Notes under the pieces: generated by a model | Databases searched by the model: none | What the model saw: only the letters and a program-made list of their open reading frames with translations | What the model was told of the DNA's origin: nothing | Shown: positions 2,116 to 51,937 of the stretch, one piece after another | Layout of the letters: each line of letters opens with the position of its first letter | Numbering within the stretch: the stretch's first letter is position 1 | Position numbers and translations under genes: made by a program | Source: a virus | Virus record (IMG/VR): IMGVR_UViG_3300034018_000646 | Coordinates: 1-61,309 of that record | Reading direction: 5' to 3' (one strand) | Length of the DNA stretch: 61,309 nucleotides

Positions 2116-2328
2116 ATGAACATCGACACCGCTATCGAGGCTGTGGGCGGCAAGGCCGCTCTGGCCCGCCTCCTCGACGTGACCCACCAAGCCGTCTGCC
2201 TGTGGTCCTCGCAGGGTTATGCCCCGCCGAAGCGCGCCATGCAGATCGCGGAGATCTCCGGCGTGCCGGGCCTGGCCCTCGTGTCCCCCGCCGTCCGCAA
2301 GATGGTTGCTGCCCTGACGGGTGAGTGA
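2116..2328 (+). CDS. Cro/YdaS-like helix-turn-helix regulator
   Basis: A 70-residue protein with a helix-turn-helix of the YdaS/Cro type: AVGGKAALARLLDVTHQAVC followed by the W-S recognition helix. A good Shine-Dalgarno (AAGGAG, 7 nt before the ATG at 2116) fixes the start. It sits immediately before the primase-helicase, whose ATG overlaps its stop, and after a 46-bp gap. A role in switching or autoregulating the replication operon is plausible but inferred. No partner repressor gene lies next to it. Confidence 0.75.
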   Translation: MNIDTAIEAVGGKAALARLLDVTHQAVCLWSSQGYAPPKRAMQIAEISGVPGLALVSPAVRKMVAALTGE

Positions 2329-4334
2329 TGGCTGGCCCGACTCCGGGCCTCGCCGTCCCCTCGCTCTTGCGCGACCTGCCCGGCTGGCTGTGCTGGCGGT
2401 ATGAGCGCATCGAGGGCTCTGGCAAGGCCATCAAGGTGCCTTACTACGCCAATGCCGGCAGGCGCTATGGCCGGCAGGGCGACGCCCGAGACCGCGCTTC
2501 CCTCGTGCCACTGGAGCGCGCCCTGGAGCGCGCCAAGGCCCGCGGCATGGACGGTGTGGGTCTGGCCATGCTCGCCGACTGGGGCATCACGGCGCTGGAC
2601 TTCGACGCCTGCGTAGACGCGCAAGGCCACCTGCCTGCCGAACTGGAGGCGCTGGTCTGCGACACCTATGCGGAATACAGCCCGAGCGGCAAGGGCGTCC
2701 GGGCCTTCGTGGCCGGGGCGCTGGGCGACCGCAAGAGCCGCGCCATCGCCGACCGCTATGGCGTGGAGACATTCACCGCTTCCGGCTTCGTCACCGTCAC
2801 AGGCAACCCGCTCTATACCGTGGACCTGTTCGACACCGGCGACGTGGTGGCGCCCGTCACCCCTAAGCTGCGGGCCTTCTGCGAGGCGCGGTTCGGCCCG
2901 CAGACCTCAAGCCCGAGCGACCCCGACGACTTCATGGTCGGGCACGAGCCCACCCTTGGCCTGGCCGAGACCGAGATCAAGGCGCTGCTGGCCGACCTCG
3001 ACGCCAGCATGGGTCGCGACGACTGGATCCGCGTCGGCATGGCCCTGCACCACGAGACCGAGGGCGACGGGTTCGACCTGTGGGACGAGTGGTCCAGCGA
3101 CGGCGAGCAATACCCCGGCAGCGACCAGCTACAGGCGCAATGGGACTCGTTCACCCGCCGGCAGGCCACGGGCCGCCAGGTCACCATGGCGTCGGTCATC
3201 AAGATGGCCCGCGAGGCGCGCGAGGCGCAGAACCCGTCCGAGCGGCTGGAGCGGCTGGCGGAGAAGGTGCAGGTCGCCGAGCCGTCGGCCTCTTACGCCA
3301 CGCCGCCGGGCTACCCGGGCCGCTTCCCCTTCGTCGCCGCCAGCGACTACATGATGCGCGAGCCACCGGAGTGGATCATCAAGGGCGTCCTGCCCCGGGC
3401 CGACCTCGGCGTGCTCTACGGCGCGAGCGGCAGCGGCAAGTCCTTCGCCGTGCTGGACATGGCCCTGGCCGTGGCGCGCGGGACGGACTGGCGCGGACGG
3501 CCCGTCAAGCAGGGCGCGGTGCTCTATGTCGCGGCTGAAGGCGGCGGGGGCGTGGCGTCTCGTGTCAAGGCATATGCCCTTGACCAAGGCCTGAGCCTCG
3601 ACGGCGTGCCGCTTGGCATCATGAACGCGGTCCCCAACTTCCTGATTGAGGAGGACATCACCGCCGTGGTCGAGGCCATGGCCGCTGCGGGTCCGACCGA
3701 CCTGGTGGTGGTCGACACCTTCGCACAGGTGACGCCCGGCGCGAACGAGAACAGCGGCGAGGACATGGGCCTGGCCCTGCGTCACGCCCGCGCTATCCGC
3801 GATGCGACCGGCGCCATGGTGCTGCTGGTCCATCACAGCGGCAAGGACGCGGCGCGGGGTGCGCGGGGCTGGAGCGGGATCCGCGCCGCCGCGGACGTCG
3901 AGTTCGAGGTCATGCGGCCCGACGAGGGGCCTGTGCGCGTGATGCGGGTCAGCAAGCAGAAGGACGGCAGGGACGACCTGTCGTGGGGGTTCACCCTGGA
4001 GCCTGTGGTGGTCGGCCTCGACCGTGACGGCGAGGAGATGAGCAGCCTTGTGGTGCGGGACGCTACGGTGCCGGTGGCGCAGAAGCCGACGGCCAAGCGG
4101 CGGCTGGGGGCGTGGGAGCAGGTGGTGATGGACGCCATCGGCCTCTTGGAGCCCAGCGTCACCAGCATGGGCATGGACCGGCTGCTGGACTACGTGGTGG
4201 GCACGGTGCCGGCACCCGAGGAGGGCGCCCGCGACATCCGGCGGCAGAGCGTGATGCGCGCAGTTCGCAGCTTGCAGAAGGGCGACGACGCCCCGCTGAT
4301 GCTGGAGCATGGCGTCGTGCAATTTTGTGCGTGA
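2325..4334 (+). CDS. Primase-helicase: Prim-Pol-like N-terminus, PriCT_2, RepA-like AAA ATPase
   Basis: A 669-residue replication protein. Residues about 15-190 resemble phage Prim-Pol-type primases (WLCWRYE, KVPYY, then ALDFDACVD and YSPSGKGVRAFV). Residues about 210-270 look like a primase C-terminal (PriCT_2) helical domain. Residues about 345-560 are a RecA-fold ATPase of the RepA/AAA_25 type, with Walker A GASGSGKS, Walker B LVVVDTFA and a HHSGKD motif typical of hexameric helicases. Together they would prime and unwind DNA at the fork. It is coupled to the upstream regulator by ATGA overlap. No other primase or helicase loader is seen, so it is likely the sole replicative primase-helicase. 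Confidence 0.85.
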   Translation: MMAGPTPGLAVPSLLRDLPGWLCWRYERIEGSGKAIKVPYYANAGRRYGRQGDARDRASLVPLERALERAKARGMDGVGLAMLADWGITALDFDACVDAQGHLPAELEALVCDTYAEYSPSGKGVRAFVAGALGDRKSRAIADRYGVETFTASGFVTVTGNPLYTVDLFDTGDVVAPVTPKLRAFCEARFGPQTSSPSDPDDFMVGHEPTLGLAETEIKALLADLDASMGRDDWIRVGMALHHETEGDGFDLWDEWSSDGEQYPGSDQLQAQWDSFTRRQATGRQVTMASVIKMAREAREAQNPSERLERLAEKVQVAEPSASYATPPGYPGRFPFVAASDYMMREPPEWIIKGVLPRADLGVLYGASGSGKSFAVLDMALAVARGTDWRGRPVKQGAVLYVAAEGGGGVASRVKAYALDQGLSLDGVPLGIMNAVPNFLIEEDITAVVEAMAAAGPTDLVVVDTFAQVTPGANENSGEDMGLALRHARAIRDATGAMVLLVHHSGKDAARGARGWSGIRAAADVEFEVMRPDEGPVRVMRVSKQKDGRDDLSWGFTLEPVVVGLDRDGEEMSSLVVRDATVPVAQKPTAKRRLGAWEQVVMDAIGLLEPSVTSMGMDRLLDYVVGTVPAPEEGARDIRRQSVMRAVRSLQKGDDAPLMLEHGVVQFCA

Positions 4335-4359
4335 CAACCCGCTTGTTAGGTATTAGATA
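4331..4359 (+). promoter_or_regulatory. Candidate sigma-70 promoter
   Basis: GTGACA (4331-4336), a 17-nt spacer and TAGATA (4354-4359) lie just after the primase-helicase stop, in an AT-richer patch. Between this and the next gene TTGTCG pairs with CGACAA and encloses a GGCC/GGCC stem, so the new transcript would start with a hairpin. The -10 match is imperfect. Confidence 0.4.
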
Positions 4360-4404
4360 ATTGTTGTCGGGCCGCTGTGGCCTGGCGCGACAAGGAGACA
4401 ACCT

Positions 4405-4623
4405 GTGACCGAGCCTGTGGACTACGACCCCGAGACCTTGACCGTCGCCGAGGCCCTGAGCCTTTTCGCCCTGAACGAGGGTAGGCTCATGCGCCTCCTC
4501 CGCGACATCCAGCGGGTGGACTCCTCGAAGGTCAACACGCGGTGGGCTTCCATCGCAAAGACGCACTTCCAGCAGGGCTTCATGGCTATGAACCGCGCCC
4601 TGTACAGGCCGTGGGAGGACTGA
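4405..4623 (+). CDS. Acb2/Tad1-type helical hairpin protein (putative anti-CBASS/Thoeris sponge)
   Basis: A 72-residue protein starting with GTG after an AAGGAG site. The C-terminal half, NTRWASIAKTHFQQGFMAMN followed by RALYRP, resembles the helical hairpin of phage Acb2/Tad1-domain proteins. Acb2 sequesters cyclic nucleotides made by CBASS and Thoeris defences. The N-terminal EALSLFALNEGRLMRLLRDI is also helical. The family call is from sequence memory; ligand binding is untested. It begins a new block after the candidate promoter at 4331, consistent with an accessory counter-defence gene. Confidence 0.5.
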   Translation: MTEPVDYDPETLTVAEALSLFALNEGRLMRLLRDIQRVDSSKVNTRWASIAKTHFQQGFMAMNRALYRPWED

Positions 4624-4624
4624 C

Positions 4625-4756
4625 ATGACGAGGACACAGGCCGCAGGGCTTGAGGACGAGGCGCTCATCGAGCGCGTGCGCGAGGCGTTTGACCACCCGC
4701 TCGTGCAGGAGTTGGTCGACCGCTTTGAGACCCTGATTTACCAAGAGGAGAACTGA
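4625..4756 (+). CDS. Small acidic hypothetical protein
   Basis: A 43-residue open frame (MTRTQAAGLEDEALIERV... to YQEEN), strongly helical and acidic. It begins 1 nt after the stop of the upstream gene and its last codons (AAGAGGAG) form the ribosome-binding site of the next gene, whose ATG is 3 nt past its stop. This tight packing supports translation. Confidence 0.55.
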   Translation: MTRTQAAGLEDEALIERVREAFDHPLVQELVDRFETLIYQEEN

Positions 4757-4759
4757 ACC

Positions 4760-5227
4760 ATGTCTATCATCATCACGCTTGAAGGCGCTGACTGGGCCGA
4801 GATCGTGTCCCAAGCCCGCCAGATCATCGGCGAACCCGCCGAGGCCCCCAAGCCCCGCGCGACCCGCACCAAGGCCACGGCGCCGGTGCAGGTGAGCGTC
4901 GAGGAGGCGGCCCCCGAGCCGGTCTACGAGACGACGCCCATCGTGGAGGAGCACGTCCCTTCCGTCGATGCGCCTGTGGCAACACAGGCGTCTACCTCGG
5001 AACCTGGATCGGACGAGCCCGCATCTGGTTCTGCGACGACTGCCTCTGAGCCTCTCACCTACGAGGACATGTCCCGTGCGGTGCTGGCCCTGGCCAAGAG
5101 CAAGGGACCGGACGCCACCAAGGCTGCGCTGGCCACCCTCGGCCTGACCACCGCCCGCGGCACGACCGAGGACATGTGGCCGAAGATCGTCGCCGCCGTG
5201 CAGGCCGCTGCGGAGATCGCACTGTGA
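4760..5227 (+). CDS. Hypothetical protein with a Pro/Ala/Glu linker
   Basis: A 155-residue protein: a short N-terminal segment (MSIIITLEGADWAEIVSQAR), a long disordered linker rich in Pro, Ala, Thr and Glu (residues about 30-105), and a helical C-terminal domain (YEDMSRAVLALAKSKGPDAT). The layout resembles small phage proteins near recombination genes, but no family was recognised. AAGAGGAG precedes the ATG. Confidence 0.7.
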   Translation: MSIIITLEGADWAEIVSQARQIIGEPAEAPKPRATRTKATAPVQVSVEEAAPEPVYETTPIVEEHVPSVDAPVATQASTSEPGSDEPASGSATTASEPLTYEDMSRAVLALAKSKGPDATKAALATLGLTTARGTTEDMWPKIVAAVQAAAEIAL

Positions 5228-5418
5228 TGGCACCCGACATCGAGCAGCGTCTGCGCGTCTTGGCCAGGGAGCGCGCCCTGTCGCGGCTGTCCAAGTCGCA
5301 CGCCAACCTGATGGCCCGTCCGATCCGCTCAGGCAGCATGGACGACACCGACATGGTGGGCCGCATCTTCAGCGACCTGGTCTACGGCTACGAGATGGCG
5401 CAGGAGGAGTGCGGCTGA
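5227..5418 (+). CDS. Small basic hypothetical protein
   Basis: A 63-residue protein starting in a TGATG overlap with the upstream gene and ending in a TGATG overlap with the DUF2800 gene. The N-terminal half is basic and helical (IEQRLRVLARERALSRLSKS), the C-terminal half acidic. Being locked between two coupled genes suggests a role tied to the nuclease/SSB module. Confidence 0.65.
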   Translation: MAPDIEQRLRVLARERALSRLSKSHANLMARPIRSGSMDDTDMVGRIFSDLVYGYEMAQEECG

Positions 5419-6611
5419 TGCAACACGCTCGCTTCTCCCCCTCTGCTGCCCACCGCTGGCTGCGCTGCCCCGGGTCGCTCGCCCTGTGCGACACGGTCCC
5501 GCCGCGCACCTCAGTCTACGCCGACGAGGGCACCGCCGCGCATGACGTGGCGAACCGCATCGTGCTGGAGGACTGGGGCGGCAACGAGGCGTTCGCCAAC
5601 CTGCGCGGCACCACCGTGCGGGTTGACGACACCGACTGGCCCGTCACCGACGCCATGATCGAAGGGGGCCTTGCCTTCCGCGACCTGGTTCTTGAGGCCA
5701 TGGGCGAGGATGGCCGGGCCTTCGCCGACCAGCGCGTGGATTTCTCGCCTTACATCGGGGCGCCCGACGCCTTCGGCACGGCGGACGCCATCGTCGTGGC
5801 CGAAGGCAGACTGACCATGATCGACTACAAGTACGGGTCGGGTGTGCTGGTCAACGCCGAGGCCAACGAGCAACTCATGCTCTACGCCCTTGGCGCCATG
5901 CACAGTTTCGACTTCCTCGGACCCTTCGAGCAGTTCGACCTGATCATCCACCAGCCGAGGGCGCAGAACGGCAACCCGGTCAGCCGGTGGAGCCTGTCGC
6001 ATGACGACCTGATGGCCTTCGCCAGTAGCACCAAGGAGGTCGTGCAGGGCATCCTGGCAGGCGACCAGACCTACGACCCCGGCGAGAAGCAGTGCCGGTT
6101 CTGCGATGCCCGCTTCGTCTGCCCGGCGCTCAAGGACGAGGTGCTGGACACCATCACCGGCGCGACGGCGGAGGACTTCGACGACGTGGATGAGGCGTTC
6201 GTTGGCACGCTGGCCAACGTGGATCCCGAGTGGCTCGCCGGCGCGATGATGAAGGTCGGGCTGATCGAGGACTGGTGCAAGGCCGTGCGCGGCGAGATTG
6301 AGCGGCGCCTGTTCGCGGGCGCTGACGTGCCCGGCTACAAGCTGGTCGAGGGCCGGATGGGCAACCGCAAGTGGTCCAACCCGGACGACGTCGCCAAGCT
6401 GCTGAAGTCCTGGCGCTTCAAGAACAGCGAGATGTACGAATACGACTTGATTTCTCCGACGGTTGCGGAGAAGTTGCTCAAGCACAGCCCAGCCCGCCTC
6501 CAGCGCATCAACGCTCTGGTCACGCGGTCCCCGGGCAAGCCATCGGTGGCCCCGGCCACGGATAAGAAGCCGGCGTTGTCCCTCGGGGCCACGGCGGCGG
6601 ACTTCGACTAG
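5418..6611 (+). CDS. DUF2800 family protein, Cas4/RecB-like nuclease fold
   Basis: A 397-residue protein matching the phage DUF2800 family: the N-terminal FSPSAAHRWLRCPGSLALC, the GTAAHDVA helix, the central acidic/lysine motif TMIDYKYGSGV (the D...xxK pattern of PD-(D/E)xK nucleases) and C-terminal cysteines (CRFCDARFVC) that in Cas4-like enzymes bind an iron-sulphur cluster or zinc. It lies directly upstream of the DUF2815 gene, the usual pairing in phage replication/recombination modules. A DNA-end-processing exonuclease role is an inference. The ATG at 5418 is chosen for the TGATG overlap; an in-frame GTG lies at 5409. Confidence 0.8.
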   Translation: MQHARFSPSAAHRWLRCPGSLALCDTVPPRTSVYADEGTAAHDVANRIVLEDWGGNEAFANLRGTTVRVDDTDWPVTDAMIEGGLAFRDLVLEAMGEDGRAFADQRVDFSPYIGAPDAFGTADAIVVAEGRLTMIDYKYGSGVLVNAEANEQLMLYALGAMHSFDFLGPFEQFDLIIHQPRAQNGNPVSRWSLSHDDLMAFASSTKEVVQGILAGDQTYDPGEKQCRFCDARFVCPALKDEVLDTITGATAEDFDDVDEAFVGTLANVDPEWLAGAMMKVGLIEDWCKAVRGEIERRLFAGADVPGYKLVEGRMGNRKWSNPDDVAKLLKSWRFKNSEMYEYDLISPTVAEKLLKHSPARLQRINALVTRSPGKPSVAPATDKKPALSLGATAADFD

Positions 6612-6636
6612 AAACCTGAAACGAGAGACATGCGAC

Positions 6637-7191
6637 ATGACCATTCTGCAACTGCGTAACGTCCGCCTGGCCTTCCCGGCGGTCTTCAAGGCCCAAGCCT
6701 TCGGCGACAACAACCCCGCCTACGGCGCCAAGCTGATCATCGACCCCGCCTCCCCCAACGTGGCGGCGATCCGCGAGGCCATCTCAGCGTCGGCCAAGGA
6801 GAAGTGGGGTCCGAAGGCGGACGACATCGTCAAGAAACTCAAGGCTGACCAGCGGTCGGCATGGGTCGAAGGGCCGTACACGACCAAGGACGGCGACACG
6901 TGGGACGGCTTCGAGGGCAACTTCTTCCTGTCCACCCGCTCCGAGAAGCTGCGCCCGACCGCTCTGGACCGTCAGGGCCAGCCGGTCACGGAAGCCGACG
7001 GGGTCATCTACGCTGGCTGCTACGTCCACGCCAGCGTCGAGATCTACGCCTACGACAGCCCGAAGTGGGGCCGGCGCATCAACGCCGTGCTTCGCGGCGT
7101 GAAGTTCTACGCTGACGGCGAGGGCTTCGGCGGGTCGACGGCAGCTTCGGCTGACGAGTTCGACGCGGACGACGAGGAGGACTTCGTCTGA
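6637..7191 (+). CDS. DUF2815 family ssDNA-binding-like protein
   Basis: A 184-residue protein of the DUF2815 family ([20 protein letters not shown], then [10 protein letters not shown]) with the acidic C-terminal tail (DADDEEDFV) typical of single-stranded DNA-binding proteins such as T7 gp2.5. Phage members are thought to be OB-fold ssDNA-binding proteins. It would coat unwound DNA at the fork made by the primase-helicase and interact through its tail with the polymerase. The TGA overlaps the GapR start (TGATG). Confidence 0.8.
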
Positions 7192-7451
7192 TGTCGGACC
7201 TGGGTCACAACTCCGTCGCGGCGAGCCAACTCCAATCCATCATCGAGCGCGTTGAGCGTCTTGAAGAGGAAAAGAGCGAGGTCGCCGCGGGCATCAAGGA
7301 GGTCTACGCCGAGGCCAAAGGCAACGGCTTCGACACCAAGACCCTCCGCAAGATCGTGGCCCTTCGCAAGAAGGACCGCGACAAGGCGATGGAGGAGCGG
7401 GCCATGCTCGAACTCTACGCCAACGCGCTTGGCTGCGCTGATCTGATCTAG
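7191..7451 (+). CDS. gapR: GapR family (DUF2312) nucleoid-associated protein
   Basis: An 86-residue protein with the conserved GapR/DUF2312 sequence: [19 protein letters not shown] (coiled coil), then [20 protein letters not shown] and IVALRKKD. GapR of Caulobacter is a small tetramer that clamps overtwisted DNA and stimulates gyrase and topoisomerase IV; the family is widespread in alphaproteobacteria and their phages. Full length. It is translationally coupled to the ssDNA-binding gene and followed by the polymerase, so it most likely acts at the phage replication fork or displaces host GapR; that is inference. Confidence 0.88.
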
Positions 7452-7459
7452 CGAAGCCA

Positions 7460-7498
7460 GAGGGGCAGGGCGGTCCTTCTCCTGCCGTCCTGCCCCTC
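7460..7498 (+). promoter_or_regulatory. Strong hairpin in the leader of the polymerase gene
   Basis: Between the GapR stop and the polymerase ATG, AGGGGCAGGGCGG pairs with CCGTCCTGCCCCT almost perfectly. There is no T-tract, so a simple intrinsic terminator is unlikely. The ATG at 7509 lacks a clear Shine-Dalgarno, so this structure may limit polymerase translation or act as an RNA-processing site. Confidence 0.5.
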
Positions 7499-7508
7499 AC
7501 CCCTTGCC

Positions 7509-8741
7509 ATGCGCACACTCATGCTCGACCTCGAAACCTACAGCGAGACGCCGATCACGCATGGCACATGGGCCTATGCGGAGAGCGCGGAGATCCTGCT
7601 GCTGGCCTACGCATGGGACGACGACGAGGTCCAGGTCGTCGAGTTCCCGGCCCCCGGCATGATGCAGTCGCTCATCGACGCTGCCGACCGGATCATCATT
7701 CACAACAGCCACTTCGACCGCACGGTCCTGTCGTTCAGTCAGGTGCGTGTGCCCGTTGAGCGCATCTACGACACCCTCGCCGTGGGCCTGCTGCACAGCC
7801 TGCCGGGCGCCCTTGATAAACAGTGCGAGGTCCTCGGCGTCCCGCTGGACAAGGCCAAGGACAAGGCGGGCAAGAAGCTGATCCAACTGTTCTGCAAGCC
7901 GCAGGCCAAGACGCGCAAGATCCGCCGGGCCACGAAAGAGACGCATCCGGCGGAGTGGGAGGCGTTCAAGGAATATGCCCGCATGGACATCGTCGCCATG
8001 CGCGAGGTCTACGCTCGCCAGCCCAAGGTCAACTGGACCGACGCCGAGAAGGCCGTGTGGCGGCTGGACCAAGCCATCAACGACCGCGGCATCCAGATCG
8101 ACATGGACCTGGCCCACGCCGCCCTGCGCGCCGCCAAGGAGGCGGGCCAGCGACTAGCAGTGGAGTCGGCGCGCATGACGGACGGCGCCGTGCCCAGCGC
8201 CACGCAGCGGGACGCCCTGATCGGCTACCTGCGCGAGGCGATGGGCCTTGAGATTGAAGACCTGCGCAAGGGCACGCTGGGCGCCCTGCTCAAGACCGAC
8301 GTGCCGGACGATGTGCGCGAGTTGCTGGAGGTGCGCCTGCAAGCAGCCGCGACCAGCCCGGCCAAGTACCGGGTGCTGGTGCGCGGCACCTCGTCCGACG
8401 GGCGGCTGCGGGGCACCATGCAGTACGCCGGGGCGTCTCGCACGGGGCGTTTCTGCTTGGCGGAAGGCACACTTGTCCGGGTCAAGGACGACACTGGACG
8501 CATCTTGGAGCGGCCCATAGAGGACGTCACGACCGACGACTTGGTGTGGGACGGCGAGTCGTGGGTTCGACACGAAGGCGTGGTGTTTTCCGGCGACAAG
8601 CCTGTGATTACGCACGACGGGGTTTGTGCGACGGTTGAACATAAAGTGTATGTTTCAACTTCAGAACATGTTACCCTCGGAGAGGCAAAGCAGAGAGGGC
8701 TACCCCTATGGAGAGGGAACGCTACACGATTTACCGGCTGA
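7509..8741 (+). CDS. DNA polymerase I, N-terminal fragment fused to an N-intein
   Basis: A 410-residue protein. Residues 1-315 are the N-terminal part of a phage family A polymerase: a DEDD 3'-5' exonuclease (LDLETYS near residue 5, HNSHFD near 65, YARMD near 158), then thumb sequence ending in the conserved SRTGRF. Here the frame switches into an intein (C316-L-A-E-G-T) and stops about 95 residues later. All polymerase active-site motifs (A, B and C) are missing and are encoded separately at 9612-10670. The fragment therefore needs trans-splicing to yield a polymerase; alone it could at most be an exonuclease. The stop lies 34 nt inside the GIY-YIG gene. Confidence 0.88.
   Translation: MRTLMLDLETYSETPITHGTWAYAESAEILLLAYAWDDDEVQVVEFPAPGMMQSLIDAADRIIIHNSHFDRTVLSFSQVRVPVERIYDTLAVGLLHSLPGALDKQCEVLGVPLDKAKDKAGKKLIQLFCKPQAKTRKIRRATKETHPAEWEAFKEYARMDIVAMREVYARQPKVNWTDAEKAVWRLDQAINDRGIQIDMDLAHAALRAAKEAGQRLAVESARMTDGAVPSATQRDALIGYLREAMGLEIEDLRKGTLGALLKTDVPDDVRELLEVRLQAAATSPAKYRVLVRGTSSDGRLRGTMQYAGASRTGRFCLAEGTLVRVKDDTGRILERPIEDVTTDDLVWDGESWVRHEGVVFSGDKPVITHDGVCATVEHKVYVSTSEHVTLGEAKQRGLPLWRGNATRFTG
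8454..8738 (+). other. Split intein, N-half (IntN)
   Basis: The intein begins with Cys1 directly after TGRF: block A CLAEGTLVRV, then a DLVW segment and block B ATVEHKVYV with the TxxH motif (Thr, His). It is 95 codons long and ends at a normal stop codon, with no in-frame endonuclease. The flanking extein sequences rejoin as TGRF-SGRIFQPQNLPR, a strongly conserved family A polymerase motif, which fixes the insertion point. Confidence 0.88.
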
Positions 8742-9625
8742 CCAGTCCTAGCGGGCGCAGCTACGCCGGTCTCACGTCTCAACCGCTACAGGTTCGCTGG
8801 GGGCAGCATGTGCGGCGCGCGGCCAAGGGCGCGCACCACCCATTCTGTGCGGCTATCCGCAAGTACGGCGCGCAGGCGTTCACCATCGAGGTCTTGCGGA
8901 CATGCGACACGCTTGAGGAGGCTTTTGTCGCCGAGATCGAAGAGATCGCGGCGCTGGTCAGCCCGTACAACCTGTCACCTGGAGGGGCGTTTGACGGCCC
9001 CGCAGGGGTTTCGGCCACCGCAGAACTTCGCCGCGACCCGGCGTGGGAAGCCGCCTACCGCGCGGCGCTTTCCCGGGGCTGCCGCGAGAGTGAAGCGCAT
9101 CAGGCACACGCCGCCGAACTCTCGGCGCTAGCCCGAGACTGGCGGTTGGCCAACCCGCGCGAGGCGTACCGCATAGCGCGTCGGAACCTGCGGCTGGCTT
9201 TGAAAGCCGAACGCAAAAACGTAAACCCCAAGGCGTGGACCGACGAGGACCGCAAGGCGCAGAGTGAACGGCTTTTGAAACACTTTGCGGAGCGCACGCC
9301 GTCTGAAAAGTTGAAAGCCAGGCGTGCGGCCCGCGCGCGGGCAAAGAAGGTGTGGGACGCACGCACCCCTGAACAGGTCGCGGGCGTGAGCGTCAAAATC
9401 TCGGAGAGCCTGGTGGCTTTCAACGCTCAACTGCCCGACGAGCAGCGTGCCGAACGACAGTCACAACTTGCCGCGGCGCGGGAGCGCATTGACCACGATA
9501 AGCGGAAGCGGCGCCAGAAGGAGGCGCTCATCGCCTACTGGACGCCGGAGCGTCGCGCCGAAGTTGGGGCGCAGCGCCGTGCGGCTGCGGCGGCCAAGCG
9601 GAGGCTCGCCAGTGCGGACGTATGA
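8708..9625 (+). CDS. GIY-YIG homing endonuclease (free-standing, inside the split polymerase)
   Basis: A 305-residue protein in a different frame from both polymerase halves. The N-terminus is a GIY-YIG domain: YTIYRLTSPSGRSYAGL supplies the IY...YxG pair, QVRWGQH the catalytic Arg, and the segment up to YNLSPGG the rest of the fold. The C-terminal 170 residues are basic and repetitive, with WTDEDRKAQSERL-type units resembling NUMOD3 DNA-binding repeats. A GAGAGGG ribosome site precedes the ATG. It overlaps the N-fragment by 34 nt and the C-fragment by 14 nt. It probably cuts intein-less alleles of the polymerase gene to spread the whole cassette; the target site is inferred. Confidence 0.87.
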   Translation: MERERYTIYRLTSPSGRSYAGLTSQPLQVRWGQHVRRAAKGAHHPFCAAIRKYGAQAFTIEVLRTCDTLEEAFVAEIEEIAALVSPYNLSPGGAFDGPAGVSATAELRRDPAWEAAYRAALSRGCRESEAHQAHAAELSALARDWRLANPREAYRIARRNLRLALKAERKNVNPKAWTDEDRKAQSERLLKHFAERTPSEKLKARRAARARAKKVWDARTPEQVAGVSVKISESLVAFNAQLPDEQRAERQSQLAAARERIDHDKRKRRQKEALIAYWTPERRAEVGAQRRAAAAAKRRLASADV

Positions 9626-9683
9626 CATCGTGAACGCCGGCCCGCGCAACCGTTTCATGGCGAACGGGCGCATCGTCTCCAAC
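9612..9683 (+). other. Split intein, C-half (IntC), unusually short
   Basis: Residues RTYDIVNAGPRNRFMANG form block F and RIVSN block G, followed by Ser+1 of the C-extein. The terminal Asn is present, but the usual penultimate His is Ser. At 24 residues it is shorter than typical natural IntC pieces (about 35-40), so the break lies very close to block F. Confidence 0.82.
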
Positions 9684-10670
9684 TCAGGGCGCATTTTCCA
9701 GCCCCAAAATCTGCCGCGACCGACCCTGAAGCAGCCGCAGATCGACCTCGGCATCGAGGCCATGAAGGCGGGCGTCGAGACGGTGTTCTACGACGACGTC
9801 ATGGAGTTGTGCGCCAGTGCGGTGCGCGGGTCTATCGTCGCGGCGCCAGGGTGCAAGCTGGTCGTGGCCGACCTGTCCAACATCGAGGGGCGGGTCCTAG
9901 CGTGGCTTGCCGGCGAGCAGTGGAAGCTGGAGGCGTTCAAAGACTTCGACGCAGGTATAGGCCACGACATCTACAAGATTACAGCAGGTGGCATCCTCGG
10001 TAAGGACCCGAGTGAAGTAACCAAGGACGAGCGGCAAGTAAACGGGAAAGTTTCTGAGCTTGCTTGCGGTTTTCAGGGCAGTATAGGCGCGTTCGCTGCT
10101 ATGGGCGCGATCTACGGCGTCAACCTGCCCGAACCCAAAGTGCTTGAGATCGTCAAGGCTTGGCGCGCGAAGCACAAGGCGACGGTCAAGTTCTGGTATG
10201 ACTGCGAGCGCGCCGCCCGCAACGCCATCAGCAACCCGGGCGAGGTCTACCGGGCCAGCAGCATTGCCTTCCGGCGCTCCGGCGGCTGGCTGCGCGCCCG
10301 CCTGCCATCAGGCCGCTACCTCTGCTACCCGTCACCGCAAGTCGACGAGGACGGGCGCCTGTCCTACATGGGCACCAACCAATACACCCGACGCTGGGAG
10401 CGGCTGGACACATACGGTGGAAAACTTGTGGAGAACCTGACACAGGCCGTCGCTCGCGACGTCCTCGCCGCCGGCCTGCTCGCGGCGGAGGCGGCGGGCT
10501 ACAGCCCGGTCCTGCACGTCCACGACGAGATCCTCTGCGAGACGGCGGACGACGTGTCGTTCAGCGCGCAGGGCCTGGCCGCGCTCATGTCGCAGGGCAC
10601 CCAGTGGTCGGTCGGCCTGCCCCTTGCCGCAGCGGGGTTCGAGACATATCGCTATAAGAAGGAGGACTGA
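9612..10670 (+). CDS. DNA polymerase I, C-terminal fragment preceded by a C-intein
   Basis: The start is taken as the GTG at 9612 because GGAGG lies 7 nt upstream, inside the endonuclease gene. The first 24 residues are a C-intein ending in Asn; the remaining 328 are the polymerase domain: motif A VVADLSNIEGR, motif B region KVSELACGFQGSIGAF, motif C VLHVHDEILCE with the catalytic HDE. Spliced to the N-fragment, the product would be about 643 residues, a normal length for a phage family A enzyme with exonuclease. An upstream ATG at 9447 is in frame, but the extra sequence looks like shadow translation of the endonuclease. Confidence 0.87.
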   Translation: MRTYDIVNAGPRNRFMANGRIVSNSGRIFQPQNLPRPTLKQPQIDLGIEAMKAGVETVFYDDVMELCASAVRGSIVAAPGCKLVVADLSNIEGRVLAWLAGEQWKLEAFKDFDAGIGHDIYKITAGGILGKDPSEVTKDERQVNGKVSELACGFQGSIGAFAAMGAIYGVNLPEPKVLEIVKAWRAKHKATVKFWYDCERAARNAISNPGEVYRASSIAFRRSGGWLRARLPSGRYLCYPSPQVDEDGRLSYMGTNQYTRRWERLDTYGGKLVENLTQAVARDVLAAGLLAAEAAGYSPVLHVHDEILCETADDVSFSAQGLAALMSQGTQWSVGLPLAAAGFETYRYKKED

Positions 10671-10997
10671 GTGACCCCCGAAGGCAAGGTGGAGGCCTAC
10701 CTGATCGCTCGCGTCAAGGCGACGGGTGGGCGGCAACGCAAACTGCAATGGATCGGCAGGCGCGGCGCCCCTGACCGCATGGTCTGGTGGCCGGGGCCGA
10801 ACCTGCACTTCGTGGAGGTCAAGCGGGCGGGTGGCCGACTGCACCCGCTCCAGGTCGTCGAGGGCGACCGGCTACGCGCCGACGGCTTCCGGGTATGGGT
10901 GGTCGCCTCCCGCGAGGAGGTGGACGCCTTCATCGAATTGGCGCTTGACGGACAGCTAACAAGCAGGGATACAGTCGGGCATGATTTGGACCGATAA
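10671..10997 (+). CDS. VRR-NUC domain nuclease
   Basis: A 108-residue single-domain protein of the VRR-NUC family: E6 in the first helix, RRGAPDRMVWWPG (catalytic Asp), HFVEVKRAGG (ExK) and LHPLQ, the standard PD-(D/E)xK layout. Stand-alone phage VRR-NUC proteins are presumed structure-specific nucleases, perhaps for junctions or flaps made during replication. It starts with GTG immediately after the polymerase stop, with GGAGG just upstream, so it is translated with the polymerase. It overlaps the GcrA gene by 17 nt. Confidence 0.85.
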   Translation: MTPEGKVEAYLIARVKATGGRQRKLQWIGRRGAPDRMVWWPGPNLHFVEVKRAGGRLHPLQVVEGDRLRADGFRVWVVASREEVDAFIELALDGQLTSRDTVGHDLDR

Positions 10998-11421
10998 AAA
11001 CACCGACACCCTCGAAAGCCTGTGGGCCGAGGGCAAGAGCGCCGCGGAGATCAGCAAGGTCCTCGGCACCACGCGCAACTCCGTCCTCGGCAAGCTGCGC
11101 CGCATGGGCCTCCGACGTCAGGCGCCGGGGGCACCTGGTGCCAAGCCGGCGAGACCCGCTACCCCGCGCCCGCCCAAGGTGCAGCCGCCCGTCAGCGTCG
11201 CGCCGGTGCGGGGCTCGCCGATGAGCCTGTGGACCGAGCGCAAGTTCGGTGAGTGCGCCTTCCCCATCGTCAAGGACGACGGGATCTATTCCTGCTGCGC
11301 CGACACCGAGGGGCACCGCTCCTACTGCCCGGCGCACCAGAAGGTGGTCTACTCGAAGCAGACCCCCTTCGTCATGTCCAAACCCCCTCGCCTCAAGACC
11401 GACGGAAGGCACATCGCATGA
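10981..11421 (+). CDS. gcrA: GcrA family cell-cycle regulator
   Basis: A 146-residue protein with the GcrA N-terminal DNA-binding helices (IWTDKNTDTLESLWAEGKSA, then EISKVLGTTRNSVLGKLRR), a Pro/Ala-rich linker (residues about 45-75) and the C-terminal sigma-70-interacting region with conserved Cys (FGECAFPI, YSCCADTEGHRSYCPAHQ). In Caulobacter GcrA binds sigma-70 RNA polymerase and activates promoters carrying methylated GAnTC. Full length. Its presence in a phage without its own RNA polymerase suggests steering of host polymerase; that is inferred. It overlaps the next gene (ATGA). Confidence 0.9.
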   Translation: MIWTDKNTDTLESLWAEGKSAAEISKVLGTTRNSVLGKLRRMGLRRQAPGAPGAKPARPATPRPPKVQPPVSVAPVRGSPMSLWTERKFGECAFPIVKDDGIYSCCADTEGHRSYCPAHQKVVYSKQTPFVMSKPPRLKTDGRHIA

Positions 11422-11702
11422 CCATCTCGCAACTGGCCGACATGTTCAACCTCGGCCCACAGGAGGCGCTGGTGCTGGCTTACCTGCTTGAGCACGAGGG
11501 TTACGCCAGCAACGTGCATCTGGCCACGGCCATCGGCCTTGACACCTCGTCGTCGATGGACGCTTGGCGCAAGTCGCACACCCACCTGTCGGTCGTGATC
11601 CACCGCATCCGGCAGAAAGTGCCGGAGGGCTCCGTCATCAACCGCCGGGGCTTCGGCTTCCGTGTCGACGCCGACAAGCTGTTCGGCGGCGACCTCGTGT
11701 GA
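11418..11702 (+). CDS. OmpR/PhoB-type winged-helix protein without receiver domain
   Basis: A 94-residue protein: an N-terminal helical region (LADMFNLGPQEALVLAYLLE), then the Trans_reg_C-like recognition helix and wing (LSVVIHRIRQKV, INRRGFGFRVD). The same fold ends response regulators such as OmpR and CtrA, but no phospho-receiver is present, so it would act constitutively or as a competitor. It is coupled to GcrA (ATGA) and to the helicase (GTGTGA), so it is co-expressed with them. Confidence 0.75.
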   Translation: MTISQLADMFNLGPQEALVLAYLLEHEGYASNVHLATAIGLDTSSSMDAWRKSHTHLSVVIHRIRQKVPEGSVINRRGFGFRVDADKLFGGDLV

Positions 11703-13060
11703 CCCGCACCTTCACGCCGCACGACTACCAGCGCGAGGCCCTCGACCACCTCTACAACCTGCGCCGCAGCGTCCTGTGGATGCCGATGGGCGGGGGCAAG
11801 ACGGTCACGGTGCTGACGGCCCTGAGCGCGCTGGACACGGTCGAGGAGGTGTTCCCCGCGCTGGTGCTGGCACCGAAGCGCGTCGTGAGCAGCACATGGC
11901 CACAGGAAGCCGCCAAATGGGCTCACACACAGGCGCTACGGGTCGTGCCAGTGTTGGGCACCGCCAAGCAGCGAGAGGCCGCCCTGCGCCTTCCTGCTGA
12001 CGTCTACGCCACCAACTACGACAACGTGCCCTGGCTCGTCGCCCACTACGGCGAGGGCTGGCCGTTCAAGACGGTGATCGCCGACGAGTTGACCCGCCTG
12101 AAGTCCTACCGCACCCGGCAGGGCGGCTCCCGGGCGCGGGCGCTGGCGAAGGTGGCGCACACCAAGTCGCGCCGGTTTATCGGCCTGACGGGCACGCCGG
12201 CACCGAATGGGCTCAAGGACCTGTGGGGCCAGGTCTGGTTCGTTGACCGCGGCGAGCGGCTGGGCCGCACGTTCTCGGCGTTCGAGGCGCGCTGGTTCAC
12301 CAAGGGCTGGGACGGCTACAGCCTCCAGCCACGCGAGTTCGCGCAGGCTGAGATCGAGGACCGGCTCAAGGACGTGTGCCTGACGGTCAAGGGCTTGGAC
12401 GTCGACGAGCCGATCCGCAACGTGATCGAGGTCGAGTTGCCGAAGGACGCGCGCAAGACCTACGAGGAGATGGAGCGCGACATGTGGGCGCTCATCGAGG
12501 GCGAGGGCGTGGAGGCCGTGAACGCTGCGGTGCGCACCAGCAAGTGCCTCCAGTTGTCGAATGGCGCGGTCTACAAGGAGGACGGCTCGTGGGCCGTCGT
12601 GCATGACGAGAAGATCGACGCGCTCAAGAGCGTGGTGGAGGAGGCCAACGGGATGCCCGTGCTGGTCGCCTACAACTTCAAGAGCGATCTGGCGCGGATC
12701 CTCGCTGCGGTTCCAGGGGCCAAGCCGCTGGACGACAACCCCAAGACGATTGTGGACTGGAACGCTGGGCGCATCCCGGTGCTGGTCGCGCATCCGGCGT
12801 CGGCGGGCCACGGCCTGAACCTACAGGACGGCGGCAACATCCTCGCGTTCTTCGGCCTGAACTGGAACCTTGAGGAACACGACCAGATCATCGAGCGGAT
12901 CGGCCCGCAGCGCCAGAAGCAGTCCGGCTACGACCGGCCTGTCTTTATCCACTACATCCTCGCCAAGGGGACGGTGGACGCGATGGTGCTGGACCGACTC
13001 GTCAACAAGCGCAGCGTGCAGGACGTGCTGCTTGAGGCTATGCGGCGCCGGGCCGGGTGA
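11699..13060 (+). CDS. SNF2-type DEAD-box helicase
   Basis: A 453-residue SF2 helicase: Q-like motif TPHDYQREALDHL, Walker A MPMGGGKT, motif II ADELTRLK (DELT in place of DEAH/D), motif III LTGTPAPNGLKDLW, and C-terminal motifs VLVAHPASAGHGLNLQ and QIIERIGPQRQKQ (arginine finger region). Phage SNF2-like proteins of this size are common in replication modules and may act in fork remodelling or recombination. It starts with GTG overlapping the stop of the winged-helix gene and is the last plus-strand gene; its end overlaps the end of the convergent ejection-protein gene by 23 bp. Confidence 0.87.
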   Translation: MTRTFTPHDYQREALDHLYNLRRSVLWMPMGGGKTVTVLTALSALDTVEEVFPALVLAPKRVVSSTWPQEAAKWAHTQALRVVPVLGTAKQREAALRLPADVYATNYDNVPWLVAHYGEGWPFKTVIADELTRLKSYRTRQGGSRARALAKVAHTKSRRFIGLTGTPAPNGLKDLWGQVWFVDRGERLGRTFSAFEARWFTKGWDGYSLQPREFAQAEIEDRLKDVCLTVKGLDVDEPIRNVIEVELPKDARKTYEEMERDMWALIEGEGVEAVNAAVRTSKCLQLSNGAVYKEDGSWAVVHDEKIDALKSVVEEANGMPVLVAYNFKSDLARILAAVPGAKPLDDNPKTIVDWNAGRIPVLVAHPASAGHGLNLQDGGNILAFFGLNWNLEEHDQIIERIGPQRQKQSGYDRPVFIHYILAKGTVDAMVLDRLVNKRSVQDVLLEAMRRRAG

Positions 13061-50514: not shown

Positions 50515-51767
50515 CATGTCAAGCCACTCTCTGCAATTTCGATCTGTCGCCCGATCCAGGCCATGACCGGGACGGCCATGCTGTTTCCCAAACTTTTGTA
50601 TCGGGGTCCGTCTGCTGCGGGCTTGCCGCGGTAGGGGATCAGCGTGTGGCCGTCAGGGAAGCCCTGGAGGCGCTCGCACTCTGTGGGGGTGAGGCGGCGG
50701 ACTTGGAGGCCAGCCTGCACAACCGCACCACCACCACGCCCTGTGCCATCCTCGCTGGCGTCAAACCCGTCGGCTTGAAGCGTGTGGAAGACCTCGCCGG
50801 TCGCGCAGACCGCAACCGCCCCGACGCCAACACCGGATCGCCCGCCTGTCGGTGTCAGGATGGCGTTCGACACGCCGTCCTGCCGGGCCTCCAGCGTTGC
50901 GCCGCCTTCCCGCCCGCGAATGGCGAGGGTGTAGGGCTCGACGACCATCGTCTCGCTCTCATAGTCGATCCGCCCCATGCCGCCGGCGTTCAGGCAGTGG
51001 GACACGTCTCCGGTGCTGATGCTGCGAACCGCCACTACAGGGTCTTGCCCTCGGGTCTCTCCAGCTCGCTCGACGCCCCGGCCACTTGAGACAAGGCTCG
51101 GAGCAACATCGGCGGAAGTGCCTTTCCCCGCCGTTCGGCGCGGCGGAGGATCCCCGCGCAGGCTTTGGGGCTCAAGAAGAACCGGCGGTCGACTGGCCCA
51201 GTCTCCAAAGTCTGCGAGAGCGAACACGCGACGGCGCCGTTGCGCCACTCCGAACCATTGCGCGTCCAGCACGGCCCACTCGACCATTCCTTCGGAGCCA
51301 ACGGCGGCGCCCTCCGTGCCCCAGCCCTTGGGCGGGACGGGGACGTCGACACCCGCCAGTTCGCCAACCACTGCTGCAAAGTCGCGTCCCTTGTTGCTGC
51401 TGAAGGCTCCGCAGACGTTCTCCCACAAGGCCCATCGGCATCCGCAGTAATCCCTTGCCCATCGCACGATGTCGACGGCGACGTGAAACAGTCCGCTGCG
51501 CTCACCGGCCAGCCCCTCCCTCTTGCCCGCCACGGACAGGTCCTGGCAGGGCGATCCAAATACCACAAGGTCAATGCGACCCAGTGCGGCGAGATCCGCC
51601 GCGTCGATCTTCGTCACGTCGCCGAGGTTCGGGACGGACGGGTAGCGGTGTGCCAGGACCGCGCTGGCGAACGCATCCACCTCCGCGACGCCGGCGCACT
51701 CCCACCCCAGCGGCTCCCACGCCACGCTCGCAGCCTCGATGCCGCTGAACAGGGACAGGTACCTCAT
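50514..51767 (-). CDS. DNA cytosine-5 methyltransferase
   Basis: A 417-residue C5 methyltransferase with motifs in order: I (YLSLFSGIEAASVAW), IV with catalytic Cys (GSPCQDLSVAG), VI (LWENVCGAF) and IX/X (RRLTPTECERLQGFPDG, SLGNSMAVPV). The variable target region lies between about residues 175 and 330. The start at 51767 is fixed by GGAG and an ATGA overlap with the upstream gene. No restriction enzyme partner lies next to it, so self-protection against host restriction is the likeliest role; the recognition site is unknown. Confidence 0.87.
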   Translation of the reverse strand: MRYLSLFSGIEAASVAWEPLGWECAGVAEVDAFASAVLAHRYPSVPNLGDVTKIDAADLAALGRIDLVVFGSPCQDLSVAGKREGLAGERSGLFHVAVDIVRWARDYCGCRWALWENVCGAFSSNKGRDFAAVVGELAGVDVPVPPKGWGTEGAAVGSEGMVEWAVLDAQWFGVAQRRRRVFALADFGDWASRPPVLLEPQSLRGDPPPRRTAGKGTSADVAPSLVSSGRGVERAGETRGQDPVVAVRSISTGDVSHCLNAGGMGRIDYESETMVVEPYTLAIRGREGGATLEARQDGVSNAILTPTGGRSGVGVGAVAVCATGEVFHTLQADGFDASEDGTGRGGGAVVQAGLQVRRLTPTECERLQGFPDGHTLIPYRGKPAADGPRYKSLGNSMAVPVMAWIGRQIEIAESGLT

Positions 51768-51937
51768 CCGAACTCCGGCGTCTCGGGCAATAGCCAGCGA
51801 CGGACGGCGGCGTATCGGGCGACCTTGTAGAGGCCGTAAAGGCGCGGCCAATGGTGACGCAGAGAATCCCATCGCTCCGCGTCCATCATCGCGTCGTGGG
51901 CGTCGTAGTAGGCTTGCAGTTCGGGCGGATAGGTCAT
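51764..51937 (-). CDS. Small hypothetical protein coupled to the methyltransferase
   Basis: A 57-residue protein (MTYPPELQAYYDAHDAMMDA, LRHHWPRLYGLYKVARYAAV, ending ETPEFG), helical and Trp/Tyr-rich. AGGAGT lies 6-8 nt before the ATG at 51937; the stop overlaps the methyltransferase ATG. Unknown function. Confidence 0.65.
   Translation of the reverse strand: MTYPPELQAYYDAHDAMMDAERWDSLRHHWPRLYGLYKVARYAAVRRWLLPETPEFG

What the first reader, a model, noticed from the sequence alone, without database searches (positions are those of the whole stretch)
7509..10670. Split DNA polymerase rebuilt by a split intein, with a free-standing GIY-YIG endonuclease gene inside the break
Seen: a family A polymerase stops 95 codons after an intein N-terminus (Cys1 directly after TGRF); a GIY-YIG endonuclease gene in another frame follows; then a GTG with its own GGAGG site opens a short C-intein (RIVSN|S) joined to the polymerase palm motifs. 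Exteins rejoin perfectly at TGRF-SGRIFQPQNLPR. Known: "fractured genes" with split inteins and interposed endonucleases have been reported from environmental phage sequences. Inference: trans-splicing is required for replication, and the endonuclease spreads the whole break by homing. The tight overlaps (34 nt and 14 nt) suggest translational coupling that keeps the halves in balance.
Basis: partly seen in the sequence, partly recalled or inferred. Interest (0 to 1): 0.93.

Follow-up and report, generated by a model that had tools for sequence, protein, structure and literature searches.

The report
Phage polymerase split by mobile intein
An environmental phage carries its DNA polymerase gene broken in two, with a gene for a DNA-cutting "homing" enzyme in the gap and the two halves of a self-splicing protein element at the broken ends that should weld the polymerase together again; related sequences indicate that the whole cassette moves between phages.

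Summary
A family-A DNA polymerase is broken in its motif TGRF|SGR by a 95-residue N-intein (8454-8738), an overlapping out-of-frame GIY-YIG endonuclease gene (8708-9625) and a 24-residue C-intein with its own start (9612-9683). It is no simple sequencing error: a second assembly is identical over 10 kb, and two other contigs (L010, L029) keep the layout. L029 holds a cassette 90-99% identical to the window's in a polymerase only 52-66% identical, with 56 identical bases around the insertion, so the cassette was recently transferred. Close relatives have an empty site with Gly, not Ser, at +1. IntN and the endonuclease are under purifying selection. A contiguous relative is predicted to fold as an intein. 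Two relatives have the split intein without an endonuclease gene. I file it as a new member of the known 'fractured gene' kind, here in a family-A polymerase with a GIY-YIG enzyme. In passing: 29 of 29 contiguous intein clusters with an endonuclease encode it OUT of the intein frame, which suggests overprinting as a route by which inteins become split. Splicing and cleavage are untested; key papers were not held.

The parts
7509..8453 (+). Family-A DNA polymerase, N-extein (315 aa, exonuclease-side half, ends TGRF)
   Evidence: PHROG_17 positions 670-975, E 6.4e-43 for the whole N-protein; extent
8454..8741 (+). IntN, 95 aa (Cys1, T60xxH63) with its stop codon
8694..8699 (+). Shine-Dalgarno-like AGAGGG before the endonuclease start
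   Evidence: read; identical in L029
8708..9625 (+). GIY-YIG endonuclease gene, 305 aa, frame +2 relative to IntN, overlaps IntN by 34 nt
   Evidence: PF01541 24.1 bits against cut-off 22.6; dN/dS 0.22 against L029
9600..9604 (+). GGAGG before the IntC start
   Evidence: read
9612..9683 (+). IntC, 24 aa, GTG start, ends RIVSN, overlaps the endonuclease gene by 14 nt
9684..10670 (+). Family-A DNA polymerase, C-extein (328 aa, palm/fingers half, starts with Ser+1) with stop codon
   Evidence: PF00476 44.6 bits against cut-off 34.3; PHROG_17 positions 976-1232

Best explanation
A mobile split-intein cassette ('fractured gene') in a phage family-A DNA polymerase. One mRNA is translated from three overlapping reading frames into (1) the exonuclease-side half + IntN, (2) a GIY-YIG homing endonuclease, (3) IntC + the palm/fingers half. 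IntN and IntC associate into one intein fold; Cys1, Ser+1 and the terminal Asn carry out protein trans-splicing, giving one 643-residue polymerase. The endonuclease cuts intein-less polymerase genes at or near motif 2 in mixed infections, and repair copies the whole cassette together with short exon flanks; those flanks bring the Ser+1 codon that the empty alleles seen here lack. Shown: anatomy, conservation of the layout, selection on IntN and endonuclease, recent transfer with matching flanks, empty sites, split inteins at the same site without an endonuclease gene. Inferred: one mRNA, splicing, cleavage, coupling.
For: Same layout in window, L029, L010. Seamless exteins. C1, T60, H63 invariant in 11 IntN. 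The model of a contiguous relative (L114; pLDDT 89.8) matches inteins: gp41-1 E 2.0e-5, DnaB intein 1mi8 Z 15.7, rmsd 2.0 over 117 residues. Window against L029: dN/dS 0.03 IntN (10 synonymous, 1 non-synonymous), 0.22 endonuclease; IntC 3 and 0; dS 0.16-0.22 in the cassette against 0.74 in exteins. 15 bases left and 41 right of the insertion identical to L029. Empty sites with Gly+1 in L009, L011, L012 at 93-95% N-extein identity. L108 and L111: split intein at the same site, no endonuclease gene. Residues Y9, Y19, G21, R30, H34, E76, N88 of the endonuclease invariant in 7 relatives. Eight window-type inteins form one starred group (99) in the tree.
Against: No wet-lab test. Pfam, NCBIfam and a profile search of PDB sequences do not recognise the intein; the fold evidence comes from a relative whose IntN part is 45% identical, not from the window's own two halves. 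The usual penultimate His is Ser. Of 9 loci with a window-type N-half besides the window's own sequence, 5 show a C-half (L010, L029, L108, L111, L113); L036 and L109 end first; L107 and L110 go on but show none. L113 has a frame break inside IntN and L107 only a remnant of the endonuclease. The cleavage site was not determined. Few columns support the tree.
Confidence: 0.87

Rival explanations
1. The intein no longer splices and the two halves work as a non-covalent two-subunit polymerase, as reported for the split NrdA of phage Aeh1 and gp43A/gp43B of phage 25.
For: Such cases exist (PMC2988022, passages). The usual penultimate His is absent. No splicing data.
Against: IntN has 10 synonymous and 1 non-synonymous, IntC 3 and 0 changes against L029. 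Terminal Asn and Ser+1 are kept in 6 of 6 loci with a C-half (window, L010, L029, L108, L111, L113). Both intein halves are kept in L108 and L111, which have no endonuclease gene.
Confidence: 0.07
2. Ribosomal frameshifting joins the three frames into one contiguous intein with an embedded endonuclease domain.
For: The frames overlap at both joints, and in the window N-half and C-half lie in the same frame.
Against: IntC lies in frame 0 relative to IntN in window and L029 but in frame +1 in L010, with the endonuclease in +2 in all three, so one fixed shift cannot serve. Endonuclease and IntC have their own starts. L108 and L111 have no endonuclease gene yet separate frames. I saw no slippery run in the 34-nt overlap, by eye only.
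Confidence: 0.02
3. Sequencing or assembly indels broke a contiguous gene.
For: A single metagenomic record.
Against: Identical 10,056 bases in another assembly; the same breaks in L029 and L010; many intein-frame stops across the endonuclease (10 and 13).
Confidence: 0.01
4. The endonuclease gene is a passenger; the cassette moved by ordinary recombination between phages.
For: Cleavage is untested and phages recombine freely.
Against: The low-divergence stretch is confined to the cassette plus tens of bases, with dS 0.74 in both exteins. The endonuclease is under selection (dN/dS 0.22) with its GIY-YIG residues kept.
Confidence: 0.08

Closest known systems
'Fractured genes' with split inteins and interposed endonuclease genes (Dassa et al. 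2009, Nucleic Acids Res 37:2560; content recalled, paper not held; cited in passages)
   Same: Phage enzyme gene broken by a split intein with a free-standing endonuclease gene between the halves; long IntN, short IntC. Foldseek's first match for the relative's model is gp41-1, by my recollection one of those inteins.
   Different: Family-A polymerase interrupted at motif 2; GIY-YIG rather than the Vsr-like family; overlapping genes at both joints; a near-identical cassette in a distant polymerase. Whether PolA or GIY-YIG is among the published loci I could not check.
PolB-type split inteins (Campylobacter phage CP21 and marine metagenomes; PMC12707363, passages)
   Same: Typically split inteins in DNA polymerases of phages or metagenomes.
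   Different: Family-B polymerases; IntN 115-120 aa; endonuclease context not described in the passages seen.
Contiguous inteins in phage family-A polymerases (Hamiltonella phage APSE-1 P45, Caulobacter phage GB2A, Streptococcus phage Javan255)
   Same: Same polymerase family; IntN 43.6-50.8% identical for Javan255 and the APSE phages.
   Different: Other insertion sites, one open frame, HNH gene inside but out of frame.
ShiLan domain (PMC11855218; abstract, passages, sections 3.6 and 4 and part of the references seen)
   Same: Endonuclease gene hidden out of frame in an insertion in a phage gene.
   Different: Reported to have no splicing domain and to leave the methylase frame open; here the insert is an intein and the host frame is broken.
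Split nrdA of phage Aeh1 and gp43A/B of phage 25 (PMC2988022, passages)
   Same: A phage replication gene split into two reading frames beside a homing endonuclease gene.
   Different: Halves are described as assembling without ligation; for phage 25 the review leaves open whether the endonuclease made the split.

Membership tests
Fractured gene / naturally split intein | Conserved enzyme gene broken into two ORFs whose extein parts join without gap or overlap | tested here: met
   PHROG_17 positions 670-975 and 976-1232; empty-site relatives
Fractured gene / naturally split intein | IntN with Cys1 and block B TxxH; IntC ending in Asn followed by Ser, Thr or Cys | tested here: met
   penultimate residue is Ser, not His (motif roles recalled)
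Fractured gene / naturally split intein | Intein (HINT) fold of the assembled halves | tested here: inconclusive
   Contiguous relative L114 matches inteins; the window's own two halves could not be folded together here
Fractured gene / naturally split intein | Free-standing endonuclease gene between the halves | tested here: met
   ORF 8708-9625; PF01541 above cut-off
Fractured gene / naturally split intein | Protein trans-splicing | not testable with these tools
   needs expression
GIY-YIG homing endonuclease | GIY-YIG catalytic domain with its conserved residues | tested here: met
   PF01541 24.1 bits, cut-off 22.6; residues invariant in 7 (catalytic roles recalled from I-TevI); N-terminal part of the model like I-TevI, TM by target 0.70-0.77, E 0.012-0.024
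GIY-YIG homing endonuclease | Mobility: same element in unlike genes, empty sites in close relatives | tested here: met
GIY-YIG homing endonuclease | Site-specific cleavage of the empty allele | not testable with these tools
   needs the enzyme
Family-A DNA polymerase | DNA_pol_A domain | tested here: met
   PF00476 44.6 bits, cut-off 34.3, on the C-half; only match in the record
Family-A DNA polymerase | 3'-5' exonuclease domain in the N-half | tested here: inconclusive
   PF01612 12.9 bits, below cut-off 23.6; PHROG_17 E 6.4e-43
Group I or II intron with endonuclease ORF | Intron RNA recognised around the endonuclease gene | tested here: not met
   Rfam scan of 7300-11000 up to E 1: one chance-level sRNA match, far below its gathering score
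ShiLan-type out-of-frame insertion | Insertion open in the host frame and without splicing domain | tested here: not met
   host frame closes after IntN; intein motifs present

The most novel reading that the evidence does not exclude
Overprinting is how phage inteins become split. In this intein class, not recognised by Pfam in the members scanned, the homing endonuclease gene was never in the intein frame: 29 of 29 contiguous clusters with an endonuclease have it in frame +1 (22) or +2 (7), and the 28 that could be tested keep the intein frame free of stops across it (0 against 1.8-9.3 expected). Because the endonuclease has its own frame and start, a stop in the linker plus a start before IntC turns a contiguous intein into a fractured gene without loss of either activity. 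35 of 35 split clusters have the endonuclease out of frame as well, with intein-frame stops near the permuted expectation. The window would be a GIY-YIG instance of this route, and split inteins without an intact endonuclease gene (L108, L111, L076) a later stage. Open: the tree is unrooted, HEG-less forms could be older rather than younger, no contiguous GIY-YIG form was found, and a contiguous HEG-less intein (L114) lies among split ones, so re-fusion may also occur.
Probability: 0.5. Interest if true: 0.82.

Novelty: new member of a known kind. Interest (0 to 1): 0.64.

Why it matters
It offers a split-intein polymerase cassette with a base-level record of transfer: near-identical copy in a distant polymerase, empty sites, and shared flanks that supply the catalytic Ser+1. 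With relatives that have the split intein but no endonuclease gene, the cycle of invasion, fixation and loss becomes testable. The surrounding family suggests a concrete route from contiguous to split inteins and adds many natural split inteins (35 split clusters with an endonuclease match, 33 of them HNH-type) that could serve protein ligation, in a class that Pfam did not recognise in the members scanned.

Tried and rejected
Intron around the endonuclease: no Rfam support. Frameshift rejoining: frames disagree between copies. Assembly error: identical and diverged copies agree. Tandem repeats in 7000-11500: none. Named phages: the endonuclease protein matched 42 records, 0 of them over 80% of its length and all under 60% identity; IntN matched 198 records at E up to 10, 8 over 80% of its length, 40 rows seen; the C-half matched 1616 records, 40 rows seen, so I cannot speak for the rest of that list. 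An HNH-type split IntN (L058) matched 17 records, 0 over 80% of its length; the 3 of these 17 that I had opened (L005, L006, L007) are contiguous. First scan of bacterial genomes (A2) found no relative; the second (A3) gave 10 loci. A GIY-YIG Pfam search of the own record did not find the gene at E 0.001 although hmmscan of the protein is above cut-off: a first-look miss or weak score, noted against a strong family match. PDB profile search with IntN found no intein. The rest of the endonuclease is helical in a model of pTM 0.34; no fold assigned, DNA-binding part unidentified.

Literature: Dassa 2009, Carvajal-Vallejos 2012 and the bioRxiv paper on actinophage inteins of non-canonical architecture cited by PMC11855218 are not held, so PolA/GIY-YIG fractured genes or out-of-frame endonucleases inside inteins may already be in print. 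All ten text searches were looked at as listings; among them only brought an out-of-frame endonuclease case (ShiLan). Searches returned no paper.

Counting notes: one search left out nine loci that repeat contigs already counted (L001, L008, L028, L033, L034, L035, L104, L105, L106). It gave 88 inteins, 71 clusters at 85% nucleotide identity: 29 contiguous and 35 split clusters with both an endonuclease match and an IntC; 7 others lacked an endonuclease match (L005, L007, split intein of L047) or an IntC (L036, L063, L080, L102). One contiguous cluster (L078) did not enter the stop test because its endonuclease frame holds a stop. The HMM was seeded with out-of-frame genes (10 split, 1 contiguous) but run on all six frames and the three forward frames. 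The summed log10 P of -78.7 counts related clusters as if independent. Four further contiguous inteins (L108, L114, L115, L116) also have the HNH match out of frame (frames computed by hand from the printed coordinates). Site labels come from a rough text rule and some are wrong; I use only the hand-picked site A. L113 is not in the tree (frame break); the window's intein is represented there by L029. Four of the eight in the starred group (L036, L107, L109, L110) are called split only because IntN ends in a stop; no C-half was seen. L065 and L069, contiguous with HNH at what looks like the same site, fall outside that group.
Full report
Observation. The window is an IMG/VR virus record of 61,309 bases. 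It reads as described: polymerase N-half plus IntN 7509-8741, GIY-YIG gene 8708-9625, IntC plus polymerase C-half 9612-10670. Exteins of 315 and 328 residues abut at positions 975/976 of PHROG_17. Overlaps are 34 and 14 nt. Both internal starts have a purine-rich Shine-Dalgarno-like site; the polymerase start at 7509 has no clear one.

Independent copies. A scan of viral contigs with the C-half gave 20 loci of 45 pattern matches. L008 is identical to the window over 10,056 bases. L010 has the same layout with IntN 73%, endonuclease 52%, IntC 88% and exteins 76% and 80%. L029 has IntN 99%, endonuclease 90%, IntC 96% in a polymerase of 52% (N-extein) and 66% (first 128 residues of the C-extein). 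L009, L011 and L012, with N-exteins 93-95% identical to the window's, have no insertion and Gly at +1.

Transfer. Between window and L029 dS is 0.157 in IntN, 0.217 in the non-overlapping part of the endonuclease, 0.741 in the N-extein and 0.744 in the compared part of the C-extein. The 15 bases left and 41 right of the insertion are identical to L029 but differ at 5 and 12 places from L009, a much nearer polymerase relative (counted by eye in the rows). I read this as co-conversion in homing. It would also explain how the cassette can settle in alleles with Gly at +1: it brings its own Ser.

Selection. dN/dS is 0.03 for IntN (10 synonymous, 1 non-synonymous changes) and 0.22 for the endonuclease (41 and 30 outside or across overlaps, 31 with the full gene); IntC has 3 and 0. 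Read in the two other frames the endonuclease region gives ratios near 1 (0.97, 1.03). Against L010 IntN has 0.22; dS is saturated for endonuclease and IntC. C1, T60 and H63 are invariant in 11 IntN. The endonuclease passes the Pfam cut-off by 1.5 bits, keeps its GIY-YIG residues in 7 relatives, and the N-terminal part of its model resembles I-TevI (E 0.012).

Is it an intein? Sequence libraries do not say so. The model of the contiguous relative L114, made with window-type IntN and IntC rows in the alignment, matches inteins: 6qaz gp41-1 E 2.0e-5, 4o1r NpuDnaB E 2.7e-5; Z 15.7, rmsd 2.0 over 117 residues with 1mi8.

The window-type group. A scan of bacterial genomes with an 11-row IntN alignment gave 10 loci of 54 pattern matches. 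L109 and L110 (Ruminococcus MAGs) carry the same site with a GIY-YIG gene in frame +2 of IntN; L113 (Clostridia MAG) has site, GIY-YIG gene and C-half but a frame break in IntN; L107 has a remnant of the gene. L108 (Synergistales MAG) and L111 (Pseudomonadota MAG) have the split intein and no endonuclease match; the IntC start overlaps the IntN stop by 14 and 8 nt. Misses: L107 and L110 continue beyond the N-half without a C-half; L109 and L036 end before it. In the tree eight inteins of this type form one starred group (99) with every IntN closed by a stop; the alignment is short and many forks are unresolved. Loss of the endonuclease is the reading that fits the remnant in L107, but an unrooted tree cannot exclude that some forms never had it.

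The wider family. A scan with the IntN alignment gave 71 loci of 92 pattern matches. Of 33 HNH-type split clusters, 31 are split two residues downstream (TGRWxG|C...HN|S and variants), L087 at TGRA|S and L096 at a third site. Contiguous inteins lie at further sites of the same polymerase, and in some genes without a match to the window's C-extein, whose product I did not identify. An HMM of HNH genes from this set was run against translated frames. In 29 of 29 contiguous clusters with an endonuclease it is out of the intein frame, in 35 of 35 split clusters too. In the 28 contiguous clusters tested the intein frame has no stop across the endonuclease; synonymous-codon permutation expects 1.8 to 9.3, with P(no stop) from 0.084 to under 1/2000. 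Split clusters have stops near the permuted expectation. In 9 of 9 contiguous pairs compared (sharing members), differences are most frequent at third positions of the ENDONUCLEASE frame in the HNH region and at third positions of the INTEIN frame in IntN. So the endonuclease protein is what is conserved there, while the intein frame is kept open.

Mechanism. Best reading: trans-splicing of the polymerase and homing of the cassette. Shown: anatomy, conserved layout, selection on IntN and endonuclease, transfer, empty sites, split inteins without endonuclease gene. Inferred: single mRNA, splicing, cleavage, coupling, need of splicing for replication (one family-A polymerase match in the record).

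Known and new. Fractured genes are known (Dassa 2009, recalled; cited in passages); PolB split inteins are known (PMC12707363, passages); an out-of-frame HNH gene in an insertion without splicing domain is known (ShiLan, PMC11855218). In the held library I found no paper that joins out-of-frame endonucleases with intein splicing domains or with the origin of split inteins (listings), but the most relevant papers are not held. The window element is therefore a new member of a known kind, with the overprinting route as the bolder case.

Noticed in passing
L002, L003, L004, L006, L029:5855-6718, L065, L069 and the other contiguous inteins listed: Contiguous phage inteins carry their HNH endonuclease gene in another reading frame (29 of 29 clusters with an endonuclease). 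In APSE-1 it is annotated in part as P46 inside P45; in Caulobacter phage GB2A no such gene is annotated.
   Followed up: yes
e.g. L058:3199-4220; clusters listed as SPLIT: 33 non-redundant HNH-type split-intein clusters, 31 of them at a site two residues downstream of the window's in phage family-A polymerases.
   Followed up: partly
L030:1501-4843, L031:1-3154, L032:628-3778: Vibrio phages VP-1, K469 and 1.244.A: the terminase large subunit ends in a GIY-YIG domain behind what may be a short N-intein; in L032 the next ORF begins with an intein-like stretch ending HN|C before the rest of the terminase, which looks like an atypical split. VP-1's terminase also has an in-frame intein-like insert (Pfam Intein_splicing 17.9 bits, below cut-off 35.8).
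   Followed up: partly
L108:5001-5394, L111:1306-1663, L076:5001-5410, L047:4923-5526: Split inteins in polymerases without an intact endonuclease gene; L076 keeps a 53-codon remnant of an HNH-type gene.
   Followed up: partly
L114:2186-2590: Contiguous intein without endonuclease among split ones in the tree: possible re-fusion of a split intein.
   Followed up: no
L112 (Aggregatibacter kilianii genome contig) and L047 (viral contig): Same coordinates and sequences of a two-intein polymerase in a bacterial and a viral record: one split intein without endonuclease match, one contiguous with out-of-frame HNH.
   Followed up: no
window 50720-51789 against L010:7412-8528: A region beside the polymerase in L010 matches the opposite strand of the window 40 kb away, so genes have been rearranged between these phages.
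   Followed up: no
window 2325-13057: Ordinary phage replication module around the break: primase/AAA protein, DUF2800/PDDEXK protein, Enc34-type ssDNA-binding protein, VRR-NUC-like protein (just below cut-off), SNF2-type helicase. Best named relatives of the C-half and of a late region are Caulobacter phages GB2A, RW, RLK and KcrB.
   Followed up: partly
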